Program-made: the position numbers and the translations under genes
The notes under the pieces: generated by a model
Told to the model about the DNA's origin: nothing
Seen by the model: only the letters and a program-made list of their open reading frames with translations
Database searches by the model: none
Source: Methanobacteriota archaeon
Lineage (GTDB): Archaea > Thermoplasmatota > Thermoplasmata > RBG-16-68-12
Length of the DNA: 34,537 bases
Direction of reading: 5' to 3'
Assembly: GCA_005878515.1 (NCBI GenBank)
Contig: VBLZ01000100.1
Location: 1-34,537, forward strand
In this document: positions 15,408-23,111 of the stretch, one piece after another
How positions within the stretch are numbered: the stretch's first letter is position 1
How the letters are laid out: each line of letters opens with the position of its first letter

Positions 15408-15480
15408 AGCCACCAGGGAGAATTGAACTCCCGACCTGCCGCTTACAAGGCGGCTGCTCTACCGACTGAGCTATGGTGGC
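15408..15480 (-). tRNA. tRNA-Thr (anticodon UGU)
   Basis: A full cloverleaf is visible on the minus strand: acceptor GCCACCA/TGGTGGC, D-stem GCTC/GAGC, anticodon stem GCCGC/GCGGC with loop CTTGTAA (anticodon TGT), T-stem GGGAG/CTCCC with loop TTCAATT, and discriminator T. No intron and no encoded CCA. A TATA-like CTTTTACC is about 25-30 nt upstream on that strand. It reads threonine ACA codons and probably others by wobble. Confidence 0.97.
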
Positions 15481-15601
15481 GTACCGAGTCCATCGACCCT
15501 TTCGGTAAAAGGGTTTCCGCGTGGTCAGGCTGCACAACAACTCGAAGAGTCTCATTTTTGGAAATCATGGAAAAGCCTTTATTCGCCGCACCCGGCCTCC
15601 G

Positions 15602-17077
15602 ATGCGCTGCGTGATCAGTCTTCCTTGTCCAACCTGCGGTAGCGAACTCGCCTTCCTCGAGCAGTATCAGCGGCACTACTGCTACGCGTGCGGAAACTAC
15701 GCGCCCGAAGGCTATGGCGATCGGGGCGCGAAAATCTGTCCGACCTGCCGGGGAATCTTGTCGTACGTGGCCCAATACGACCGCCACTACTGCTACCGGT
15801 GCAATGCGTACCCCGCGGACGGCGTGGTCTTGCAATCGTTGGAGGCCACGATGCCCGTCGATGTGCGGCCCGTCGACGTTCAGCCCGTCGCCGAAGCGAC
15901 CGAGCCCGCCCCGATCGTGACGGAACCCGAGACCGCGGTGGACGTGTCGGAGGCACCCGAGGTGGCGAAGCCGACGGACGTCGAACCGACCGCAGAGGCC
16001 GAGACGACGGAAGTGCCCACCACCCCGACGACCCCCGCGCCCGCCGAAGCCTCGCCCCAGCCTGAAGAAATCGTGGAAGAAGAACTTCCCCGCGAGGAAC
16101 CGAAGGAGCCAGGACCGAGACCCCCGATCGTTCGCCTCAGAGTATTCCAGGCAAAGAAGCCGGCGCTCATGGATCTGTGCAAGGCCTACGACCTCGATCC
16201 GACCGGGACGAAAGAGCAGCTCCGCGAACGGCTCCTGAGCTATCTCGACACCTTGGAGGCGGAGGCCGAACCGGAGCCGATAGCCAAGAGTGAGGCGCCG
16301 GCCGGACCGGCTCCAATCGAACGACCCGAAGTCGAGGGTGAGTCCGTACACACGCCCGACGACGTCGCGGAAACCCCGTCAGTCGTGGAGGAACTGGAAA
16401 GCGAACAGCCCGGCAGCGCTAGTCCCGTGGTGGAGACACCGGTCGAAACGCATGCCACTCAGGAGGCCGTCGCGGAACGAATCGAAGTGCCCTCGTTCGT
16501 CTCGATCCCCGAATCCCAGCCCGCGGTCTCGGTCGCCCCCGCCGTCGAGCCGATGCGCGCGCTCCATCCATGTCCGACGTGCGGCCGGGAGCTCACATAC
16601 ATTGCCCGGTACCGGAGGTGGTACTGCTATCACTGCCGGGCGTACGCGCCGGCGAGCGAGTCGAGGTTCGCCTGTCCGACCTGCGGCGCGGCATTGCGCT
16701 GGATCGGTCAATACGAACGGTGGTGGTGCGATTCCTGCCGACGGTACGCGCCCGCGGACCTCCCGAAACCCGAGTCCGCCGCTGTCGTGACCGCGATGCC
16801 CGCGGAAGCCGTGAAACCGCTCTCTTATGCGACTGCACTCCCGGCCACCAGCGTCACACATCGACATCGAAGCCCCGGTAGCGGGATCGGCCTCGTCGGA
16901 TTCGGGGTGATCCTCTTCGTCTTGTACGAGATGCTCGTGGACCTTCCGGGCGCCCTCTCCTACAGCACAGGGATCGCCGTCCCTCAGGACCTCGCCTTCG
17001 GCCTCCGGTTCTTCGCCTTCGTTTTCGTCGCCCTCGGCGCCATCACGGGCCTGTCGGCCGTTCGCGATCGACGCTGA
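15602..17077 (+). CDS. Four-zinc-ribbon, SAP-domain membrane protein
   Basis: A 491-residue protein with an unusual layout. Four zinc ribbons of identical CxxC-x14-CxxC spacing occur as an N-terminal pair (C9-C30, C46-C67) and a second pair (C324-C345, C358-C379), each with aromatic YxRxYCYxC-type flanks. Between them are two long Pro/Glu/Ala/Thr-rich disordered linkers framing a SAP-like helix-extended-helix (about residues 183-216, LMDLCKAYDLDPTGTKEQLRERLLSYL), a motif usually binding DNA or RNA. Two C-terminal TM segments follow (about 428-446 and 465-485). I infer a membrane-tethered nucleic-acid- or protein-binding scaffold with the ribbons in the cytoplasm. ATG 15602 has TATA-like CCTTTATTC about 22-25 nt upstream, so the mRNA is probably leaderless. 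Specific function unknown. Confidence 0.8.
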   Translation: MRCVISLPCPTCGSELAFLEQYQRHYCYACGNYAPEGYGDRGAKICPTCRGILSYVAQYDRHYCYRCNAYPADGVVLQSLEATMPVDVRPVDVQPVAEATEPAPIVTEPETAVDVSEAPEVAKPTDVEPTAEAETTEVPTTPTTPAPAEASPQPEEIVEEELPREEPKEPGPRPPIVRLRVFQAKKPALMDLCKAYDLDPTGTKEQLRERLLSYLDTLEAEAEPEPIAKSEAPAGPAPIERPEVEGESVHTPDDVAETPSVVEELESEQPGSASPVVETPVETHATQEAVAERIEVPSFVSIPESQPAVSVAPAVEPMRALHPCPTCGRELTYIARYRRWYCYHCRAYAPASESRFACPTCGAALRWIGQYERWWCDSCRRYAPADLPKPESAAVVTAMPAEAVKPLSYATALPATSVTHRHRSPGSGIGLVGFGVILFVLYEMLVDLPGALSYSTGIAVPQDLAFGLRFFAFVFVALGAITGLSAVRDRR

Positions 17078-17119: not shown

Positions 17120-18136
17120 ATGCGGCTTCAGCAGGTGGTGAAGGACGAGCGACGTCCGCGCGAATTCGACCCGCGGGAATACATCTCCACCTGGACCGAG
17201 AAGGACCTGCTCCACGGGAAGATCGTGGACGCGTGGGTCATCATCTTCCGGACCCGCGGCTGCTACTGGGCGCGCTCAAGCGGCTGCTCGATGTGCGGAT
17301 ACGTGAACGACGTGGCCCAGGAAGTGAGTCCCGCGGACATCGGCCACCAGCTCGACGTGGTCCTGAAGAAGCATCAAGGACAGCCCCTCGTCAAGGTGTA
17401 TACTTCCGGGAACTTCTTCGACGACCACGAAGTGTCTCTAGATGTCCGAGAGCGAATCCTCACAGAACTCGGAGACCGCTGCGACAAGGTCATCGTCGAG
17501 ACGCTCGCCCACCTGTTGCGCCGCGACCAGCTCGAGCACGCCCTGCGTTTCGTCGACGAACTCGAGATTGCCTTGGGGCTCGAGTCGACGAACGAGAACG
17601 TCCTGCGGTACGCCGTCAACAAAGTCTGGGGCCTGAACGAACATGCGCGGGCCGCGACCGTCGCGCGCGAGGCCGGCGCGACCGTTAAGACGTATCTGTT
17701 GATCAAGCCGCCCTTCCTGACGGAACGGGAGGCGATCGAAGATGCCGTCCGATCGGGACACGAGGCGGATCCGCACAGCGACACGGTCTCCTTCAACCCG
17801 GTGAACGTCCAGAGCCGCACGATCGTCGACCGGCTCTTCCGCCGGGGCGAGTACCGCCCCCCGTGGCTCTGGTCCGTCGTCGAGGTCCTCGAGCGCACCC
17901 GCGACTTGAAGGCCCACGTGAAAAGCCACCCGACCGCGGGCGGCCTGGTCCGCGGGGCCCACAACTGCGGAACCTGCGATCGACGTGTCGTGAACGCGAT
18001 CGAAGAATTCTCGCTCGGCCTCCGCGCGGACTTCGGCGACCTGTCGTGCGCCTGCCAGGAGGTGTGGCGGGCCTACGGTGAGACGCAACCGTTCATGATG
18101 ACGTCCGCTGATCCACTGGCGGTCCTTGAAGCGTAA
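17120..18136 (+). CDS. raSEA: Archaeosine biosynthesis radical SAM protein RaSEA
   Basis: A 338-residue radical SAM enzyme. With ArcS, RaSEA converts the lysine-modified preQ0 at tRNA position 15 to archaeosine. The cluster-binding cysteines lie in FRTRGCYWARSSGCSMCGY (C48, C56, C59), the elongated Cys spacing characteristic of this family and of Elp3-like radical SAM proteins. LESTNENVLRYAVNK and FNPVNVQS are conserved core segments. A C-terminal cysteine set (CGTCD and CACQEVW) may bind another metal. ATG 17120 has an AT-rich AAAGGTTTTT about 30 nt upstream. A small conserved gene follows 39 bp downstream and could be cotranscribed. Its partners ArcS and TGT are outside the window. Elp3 is excluded by size and lack of an acetyltransferase domain. 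Confidence 0.9.
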   Translation: MRLQQVVKDERRPREFDPREYISTWTEKDLLHGKIVDAWVIIFRTRGCYWARSSGCSMCGYVNDVAQEVSPADIGHQLDVVLKKHQGQPLVKVYTSGNFFDDHEVSLDVRERILTELGDRCDKVIVETLAHLLRRDQLEHALRFVDELEIALGLESTNENVLRYAVNKVWGLNEHARAATVAREAGATVKTYLLIKPPFLTEREAIEDAVRSGHEADPHSDTVSFNPVNVQSRTIVDRLFRRGEYRPPWLWSVVEVLERTRDLKAHVKSHPTAGGLVRGAHNCGTCDRRVVNAIEEFSLGLRADFGDLSCACQEVWRAYGETQPFMMTSADPLAVLEA

Positions 18137-22184: not shown

Positions 22185-23111
22185 TCACTTTTCCTCTTCC
22201 TTCTGGAGGACCCGGACGCTGTCGCCGCGGACCGTTACCGGGATGCGGACCATGGCCTCGAACAGCTCGACGGTGATCTCTTCCTTGGTCTCGTCGATCT
22301 TCATGACGCGGGCCTTTTCTCCCTTGAACGGGCCGGCGACCAGTTCGACAATGTCGCCTTCCATGATCCCGCTGACGATCGGTTTCGGGGTGAGGTACGC
22401 CTCGATTTCCGAGAAGGCGATTCCCGTCGACTCCCCCTCGCCCTTCACGACGCCGCGAGCCCGTCGCAGACCGCGGACGACTTCCTCCAGGCGATCCGGG
22501 TTCATGCTCTCGACGTAGACGTAACCGCGGAAGTTCGCGGGGACGAGGACCGAAAACACGCCGACGTCCTTTGCCTTGGCCCGGGCGTAGATGGCGTCCG
22601 CCACGGCGCGCTCATGACCGATCGAGGACTTGACCGCAAGGACCGCCTGTCGCGCGCTGAAGCTGAGGGTCTTCGCGTCGAACGCCCCGGGGTCGCCCTT
22701 TGAGATCGCATTCACGACGACGTTCAACCGGTCCCCGTACCGAGCGCCCTTCGGACATGTGACGGTCAAGGTGATCTCACGCTGGCCGTCCGCGATCAAT
22801 CGGAACTCCTTCTCCGTGACCTTCGTGAACGTGACGTCCCAGACCTTGTCCTCGACGCCGTACAGTTTGACGGTCCACTCGGGCGGATCGGGAAGCTCGG
22901 AATTGTAGACGAGGTCCACCTTGATCCGGATCGTGTCGTCCTCGGTTCCCGTGTTCGTGACGACGACAGCGTATTCTTTCGTCTGCCCGGCCGTGAGGGA
23001 GACTTTCTCTTCCTTCAGGTCCAATTTGACGGCGTAGTGGCCGACGGCGGGCGGTTCTGGCTTGGACTCCGACTTCGCCTCGCGCTTCGAGAGATCGTCG
23101 AGCAATCCCAT
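22185..23111 (-). CDS. spt5: Transcription elongation factor Spt5 (NusG) with N-terminal Ig-like domain
   Basis: A 308-residue Spt5/NusG, about twice the common archaeal length of roughly 150. The NGN domain (about residues 155-242; AVLAVKSSIGHERAVADAIYARA and FRGYVYVES) binds the RNA polymerase clamp with Spt4. The KOW domain follows (248-305; MEGDIVELVAGPFKGEKARVMKID). Ahead of these is a charged leader and a beta-sandwich-like domain (about 24-152) with KVSLTAGQTKEYAVVVTNTGTEDDTI and LIADGQREITLTVTCP, resembling CARDB/NEW3-type Ig-like modules. No signal peptide, so it is cytoplasmic. It lies four bases after secE, the classical secE-nusG pair. The fusion is continuous in frame. The role of the extra domain is unknown; a protein-contact surface on the elongation complex is my inference. 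Confidence 0.93.
   Translation of the reverse strand: MGLLDDLSKREAKSESKPEPPAVGHYAVKLDLKEEKVSLTAGQTKEYAVVVTNTGTEDDTIRIKVDLVYNSELPDPPEWTVKLYGVEDKVWDVTFTKVTEKEFRLIADGQREITLTVTCPKGARYGDRLNVVVNAISKGDPGAFDAKTLSFSARQAVLAVKSSIGHERAVADAIYARAKAKDVGVFSVLVPANFRGYVYVESMNPDRLEEVVRGLRRARGVVKGEGESTGIAFSEIEAYLTPKPIVSGIMEGDIVELVAGPFKGEKARVMKIDETKEEITVELFEAMVRIPVTVRGDSVRVLQKEEEK

What the first reader, a model, noticed from the sequence alone, without database searches (positions are those of the whole stretch)
15602..17077. Four identical-spacing zinc ribbons around a SAP domain with a membrane anchor
Two pairs of CxxC-x14-CxxC ribbons with a shared aromatic pattern flank a SAP-like helix pair and long disordered linkers, ending in two TM helices. 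I know of no described protein with this layout. It could tether DNA or ribonucleoprotein to the membrane.
Basis: partly seen in the sequence, partly recalled or inferred. Interest (0 to 1): 0.6.

Follow-up and report, generated by a model that had tools for sequence, protein, structure and literature searches.

The report
Membrane-anchored SAP and zinc-ribbon archaeal protein
An uncharacterised protein, conserved throughout one order of archaea, hangs nucleic-acid-type domains (four zinc ribbons and a SAP domain) from the inner face of the cell membrane; the closest relatives of its SAP domain sit on ribosomal proteins of the same archaea, which hints that it holds ribosomes or RNA (or, less likely, DNA) at the membrane.

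Summary
It has four C-x2-C-x14-C-x2-C ribbons, a SAP domain (Pfam; AlphaFold pLDDT 82-94; Foldseek to solved SAP domains, probability up to 0.99), acidic disordered linkers and a C-terminal two-helix membrane hairpin. It is an order-wide family: 34 of 37 genomes have it (the other three are 65-78% complete), with 4-7 ribbons, one SAP and two TM helices. The archaeosine gene RaSEA lies directly downstream in 31 of 33 testable genomes. No database family covers the whole protein. New here: the nearest relatives of its SAP domain are extensions of ribosomal proteins eL32, uL4 and uS3. Best reading: a cytoplasm-facing membrane tether for ribosome/RNA (0.4); DNA tether and protein scaffold remain open. 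A pilin-regulator role, suggested by divergent pilin genes in other families, is disfavoured because the window's genus lacks those pilins. Nucleic-acid binding, zinc binding and topology are all inferred. Same-locus proteins in other orders keep ribbons but lack SAP and TM, so the anchor is lineage-specific.

The parts
15545..15585 (+). Conserved upstream block including a TATA-like TTTATT at 15578-15583; near-leaderless promoter
   Evidence: Near-invariant in ten orthologs although the reading frame through it shifts; the core occurs essentially once per genome, at this gene, in 11 of 19 genomes of the genus
15611..17077 (+). Whole gene, 488 aa, conserved GTG start
   Evidence: Orthologs 52-86% identical over the full length; codon-position-biased substitution
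15626..15691 (+). Zinc ribbon 1 (CPTCGSELAFLEQYQRHYCYAC)
   Evidence: Cysteines invariant in ten orthologs, identity 0.85
15737..15802 (+). Zinc ribbon 2 (CPTCRGILSYVAQYDRHYCYRC)
   Evidence: Identity 0.79; last Cys replaced by Glu/Asp in some relatives
15830..16105 (+). Acidic, Pro-rich disordered linker 1
   Evidence: pLDDT mostly below 50; net -19 over residues 74-170; identity 0.33
16133..16267 (+). SAP domain (residues 175-219)
   Evidence: SAP_new25 above cut-off, three helices at pLDDT 82-94, separate model pTM 0.64, Foldseek to SAP structures
16280..16552 (+). Acidic disordered linker 2
   Evidence: pLDDT below 50; net -15; identity 0.29
16571..16636 (+). Zinc ribbon 3 (CPTCGRELTYIARYRRWYCYHC)
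   Evidence: Cysteines invariant, identity 0.87
16673..16738 (+). Zinc ribbon 4 (CPTCGAALRWIGQYERWWCDSC); ribbon pair 3-4 has net charge +5
   Evidence: Cysteines invariant, identity 0.89, charge
16880..16969 (+). TM helix 1
   Evidence: Hydropathy, model helix 424-453, identity 0.85
16985..17071 (+). TM helix 2, ending RDRR; positive flanks on both sides of the hairpin imply both termini are cytoplasmic (inference)
   Evidence: Hydropathy, model helix 459-487, identity 0.87; charges read from the sequence
17120..18136 (+). RaSEA, archaeosine biosynthesis radical SAM protein (neighbour with conserved synteny; not part of the protein)
   Evidence: TIGR01210 E 1.9e-98; directly downstream in 31 of 33 testable genomes

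Best explanation
A membrane-anchored adaptor whose whole soluble part faces the cytoplasm. The C-terminal two-helix hairpin fixes it in the cell membrane; long acidic disordered linkers act as a flexible leash; the SAP domain and the zinc ribbons along the leash bind a nucleic-acid-containing partner, most likely RNA in the form of the ribosome or a translation-associated ribonucleoprotein, and hold it near the membrane. Shown here: sequence features, predicted SAP fold, conservation, restriction to the order, kinship of the SAP with ribosomal-protein extensions, translation-related neighbours. Inferred: topology (positive-inside rule), zinc binding, nucleic-acid or ribosome binding, tethering.
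For: SAP fold. Ribbons, SAP and TM hairpin are conserved (0.78-0.89 identity) while linkers drift (0.29-0.40). One SAP and two TM helices in every order member read in full, in 34 of 37 genomes. Closest relatives of this SAP in the class are N-terminal extensions of eL32 and uL4 and a C-terminal extension of uS3, mostly closer than other SAP proteins of these genomes. Neighbours are RaSEA (tRNA modification) in 31 of 33 testable genomes and a converging L12-L10-L1-L11-Spt5/NusG cluster. Ribbon pair 3-4 is net positive, linkers strongly negative.
Against: The SAP region is not net basic (-2 over 52 residues). SAP domains are best known for DNA binding (1h1j among the hits). RaSEA has its own TATA-like motif in the short gap in most genomes, so the pairing may be only gene order. 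In other orders the same-locus relatives (L046-L050) have ribbons but no SAP and no TM, so ribbons have a role that needs neither. The comparison set was collected with a profile of this family, a possible bias.
Confidence: 0.4

Rival explanations
1. Nucleoid-membrane tether: SAP and ribbons bind chromosomal DNA and hold it to the membrane, in the way HeH/SAP-type inner nuclear membrane proteins do in eukaryotes (analogy from general knowledge).
For: SAP is typically a DNA-binding domain; structural matches include DEK on nucleosomes, FAN1-DNA, Ku70 SAP and the S/MAR-binding SAP 1h1j. A second group with one ribbon and SAP, with two TM helices in L091, exists in the family (L091, L148).
Against: Nearest SAP relatives sit on ribosomal proteins; neighbours are translation-related; no basic charge excess in SAP.
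Confidence: 0.2
2. Protein scaffold: ribbons and SAP bind proteins, not nucleic acid, and assemble a complex at the membrane.
For: Multi-ribbon relatives without SAP or TM exist at the same locus in other orders (L046-L050); the TM helices are unusually conserved within the genus for a mere anchor (0.85-0.87), suggesting specific contacts; SAP not basic.
Against: SAP present in every order member read in full, with its nearest relatives on ribosomal proteins; ribbon pair 3-4 is net positive.
Confidence: 0.25
3. Membrane-bound one-component regulator of adjacent type IV pilin genes, working like Sulfolobus ArnR (N-terminal DNA-binding domain, two C-terminal TM helices; PMC6396743).
For: Divergent pilin-like gene pair upstream in f1 g2, f2, f5 and, with soluble relatives, in f8/f23; two C-terminal TM helices.
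Against: None of the 19 genomes of the window's genus has the pilin, yet nearly all keep the gene; in f3 and f6 the pilin is elsewhere; no HTH domain; SAP is not usually sequence-specific.
Confidence: 0.08
4. Membrane platform for the archaeosine enzyme RaSEA or for tRNA modification.
For: RaSEA directly downstream in 31 of 33 testable genomes.
Against: Separate TATA-like motif before RaSEA in most genomes; two genomes have both genes but not adjacent (G083, G207); RaSEA occurs far outside this order without this gene (controls).
Confidence: 0.07

Closest known systems
SAP domain (Pfam PF02037 / PF18953)
   Same: Profile match and predicted helix-extension-helix fold; conserved Gly and Leu positions
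   Different: Here embedded between zinc ribbons in a membrane protein; not net basic
SAP-bearing ribosomal proteins eL32 and uL4 of the same order, uS3 of another family
   Same: Closest SAP sequences by profile score; SAP joined by a charged linker
   Different: Those are soluble ribosomal proteins without ribbons or TM helices
Heh1/Src1/LEM2-type inner nuclear membrane proteins (from memory)
   Same: Works alike if it tethers DNA: SAP-like HeH domain, disordered linker, two TM helices
   Different: No MAN1/Src1 C-terminal domain or lumenal domain; zinc ribbons instead; no sequence kinship shown
ArnR membrane-bound regulator of Sulfolobus (PMC6396743)
   Same: Cytoplasmic N-terminal part and two C-terminal TM helices; pilin genes nearby in some families
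   Different: No HTH, HAMP or sensor domain; pilins absent in the window's genus
Multi-ribbon proteins at the same locus in other orders (L046-L050)
   Same: Same x14 aromatic ribbons; divergent pilin genes as in f2
   Different: No SAP, no TM helices

Membership tests
SAP domain | Profile match above curated cut-off | tested here: met
   SAP_new25 28.7 bits vs 26.3; PF02037 22.3 vs 23.9 in the protein scan but 26.7 bits, over cut-off, in the genome search, and above it in L036, L040, L041
SAP domain | Helix-extension-helix fold | tested here: met
   Three helices, pLDDT 82-94; Foldseek probability up to 0.99 and TM-score up to 0.70 to solved SAP domains, E-values above 0.1 because the domain is short
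SAP domain | Nucleic-acid binding | not testable with these tools
   Charge of the region is -2; needs a binding assay
Zinc ribbon | Two CxxC knuckles on a beta hairpin | tested here: met
   Four C-x2-C-x14-C-x2-C; strands predicted at each, pLDDT about 65-85; several Pfam ribbon models match weakly
Zinc ribbon | Binds zinc | not testable with these tools
   Needs metal analysis
LEM2/Heh1-type membrane proteins | MAN1/Src1 C-terminal domain after the TM helices | tested here: not met
   Protein ends with RDRR right after TM2; no such Pfam match
ArnR-type membrane regulator | N-terminal HTH domain | tested here: not met
   No HTH match in Pfam
Any described whole-protein family | Model covering the full length | tested here: not met
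   None in Pfam, NCBIfam or PDB sequences

The most novel reading that the evidence does not exclude
A dedicated archaeal ribosome or mRNA receptor: a membrane-anchored protein that recruits ribosomes to the membrane using a SAP module shared with ribosomal-protein extensions (eL32, uL4) of the same lineage.
Probability: 0.18. Interest if true: 0.75.

Novelty: new variant of a known kind. Interest (0 to 1): 0.5.

Why it matters
How archaea position ribosomes and chromosomes at their membrane is poorly known. A single-copy, order-wide protein that puts nucleic-acid-type domains on a membrane leash, with its SAP module shared with ribosomal proteins of the same cells, is a concrete candidate that can be tested with one purified protein. 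It also reveals SAP as a recurrent add-on of ribosomal proteins in this group.

Tried and rejected
PDB sequence search with the family profile: no hit. Literature searches for a SAP plus zinc-ribbon membrane protein in archaea, or a SAP-bearing L32e: none in the open papers held. Antisense ORF 15443-16351 (302 aa): rejected, substitutions follow the + strand frame. ATG start at 15602 and an extended N-terminus up to 15521: rejected, not conserved and frame shifts between orthologs. Operon with RaSEA: doubtful, own TATA-like motif. Pilin regulator: disfavoured. Phylum-wide search: only ribbon-level matches outside the order.

Full report
Observation. Comparison of the window protein with nine soil euryarchaeal orthologs (MAGs titled 'Euryarchaeota archaeon isolate EA_n') moves the start to the GTG at 15611: the ATG at 15602 is missing in most, the GTG is in all, and the sequence upstream is a conserved promoter block with a TATA-like TTTATT whose distance to the GTG implies a near-leaderless message (the leaderless reading is inference). 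The frame through that block shifts between orthologs, so it is non-coding. Its 18-base core occurs essentially once per genome, at this gene.

Domains. The four ribbons all have the x14 spacing, and 141 of 142 aromatic ribbons in the family loci share it; they are diverged repeats (11-16 of 27 identical). Foldseek E-values are above 0.1, as expected for some 45 residues. Linkers are disordered and acidic. The two C-terminal helices form a hairpin flanked by positive residues (HRHR before, RDRR after), so both termini should be cytoplasmic (inference).

Conservation. Among the ten orthologs, ribbons, SAP and TM helices keep 0.78-0.89 pairwise identity while linkers keep 0.29-0.40. In the order, all 37 genomes give some match and 34 have the gene itself; the three without it (G179, G199, G215) are 65-78% complete. 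Architecture varies: ribbons-SAP-four ribbons-TM (f2), SAP first, then four ribbons and TM (f3), two ribbons, SAP and four ribbons (f1 g2), but one SAP and two TM helices are constant in members read in full. In several members the fourth ligand of a ribbon is Asp or Glu instead of Cys (L005, L031-L035). Outside the order, loci with the same divergent pilin genes carry soluble multi-ribbon proteins without SAP or TM (L046-L050), and a phylum sample shows only ribbon-level matches.

Neighbours. RaSEA (TIGR01210) lies directly downstream in 31 of 33 genomes where it can be judged (in G083 it is 2.4 kb away, in G207 on another contig; in G183 the contig ends, my tabulation of the two lists). The gap is about 33-55 nt in most, with a TATA-like motif in most, so co-transcription is doubtful. 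Beyond it are DUF5611 and a converging L12-L10-L1-L11-Spt5 cluster. A pair of pilin-like genes is divergent upstream in f1 g2, f2, f5 and in f8/f23 of other orders but the pilin is absent from all 19 genomes of the window's genus, which disfavours a pilin-specific regulator.

SAP kinship. A search for this SAP across 250 genomes of the class finds, after the family itself, mainly proteins that turn out to be ribosomal: eL32 with an N-terminal SAP (L082, L083, L085, L090, and L145 in the window's own genome), uL4 with an N-terminal SAP (L093, L094, family f4) and uS3 with a C-terminal SAP (L147). Profile scores run both ways: the membrane-family SAP profile scores these at 37-56 bits against 26-34 for the other SAP proteins except one close membrane paralog (L091, 54 bits), and the eL32 SAP profile ranks uL4, uS3 and most of the membrane family ahead of the rest. 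The comparison set was collected with the family's own profile, so this is suggestive, not proof. Other SAP proteins with TM helices also occur (L091, L140, L142, L149), so tethered SAP domains are a theme in this group.

Explanation. The best-supported reading is a cytoplasm-facing membrane tether for a nucleic-acid-containing partner, with RNA/ribosome preferred over DNA because of the SAP kinship and the translation neighbours (0.40). Protein scaffold 0.25, DNA tether 0.20, pilin regulator 0.08, RaSEA platform 0.07. None of the binding steps is shown.

Novelty. Known domains in an architecture for which no whole-protein family exists in the libraries searched, and no paper describing it was found in the open library. 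I rate it a new variant of a known kind.

Noticed in passing
L082:1992-2738 (-), L085:2362-3102 (-), L090:2333-3040 (-), L145:1913-2701 (+) (window's own genome): Ribosomal protein eL32 carries an N-terminal SAP domain and a charged linker across the order.
   Followed up: partly
L093:600-1571 (-), L094:9859-10872 (-); L147:809-1768 (+): SAP domains are also fused to uL4 (N-terminal, family f4) and uS3 (C-terminal, f13): repeated SAP attachment to ribosomal proteins.
   Followed up: partly
window 22185-23111 (-): Spt5/NusG (NGN plus KOW) with about 130 extra N-terminal residues that weakly resemble an Ig-like NEW3/NPCBM-associated domain (E 1.9e-4; sequence); unusual fusion.
   Followed up: no
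window 15545-15585; orthologs L001-L009: Near-invariant block of about 40 nt up to and including the TATA box of the gene, essentially unique per genome; suggests gene-specific or auto-regulation.
   Followed up: partly
L005, L031-L035: Fourth zinc ligand of some ribbons is Asp or Glu (CYRE, CYKD, CYAE) instead of Cys.
   Followed up: no
L036:7459-8442 (+), L046:5377-6421 (+), L048:2926-4116 (-): Conserved pair of type IV pilin-like genes with the motif IEGLPLQL, divergent from the ribbon gene in several families and orders.
   Followed up: partly
L142:792-1493 (-), L140:2444-5089 (+), L149:1241-2053 (-), L148:1216-2163 (+), L091:2577-3860 (+): Other SAP proteins, most with TM helices: 2TM-SAP-ribbon, 2TM-SAP-coiled coil, RDD-SAP, ribbon-SAP-2TM (L091); L148 shows ribbon-SAP but is cut at the contig end.
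   Followed up: partly
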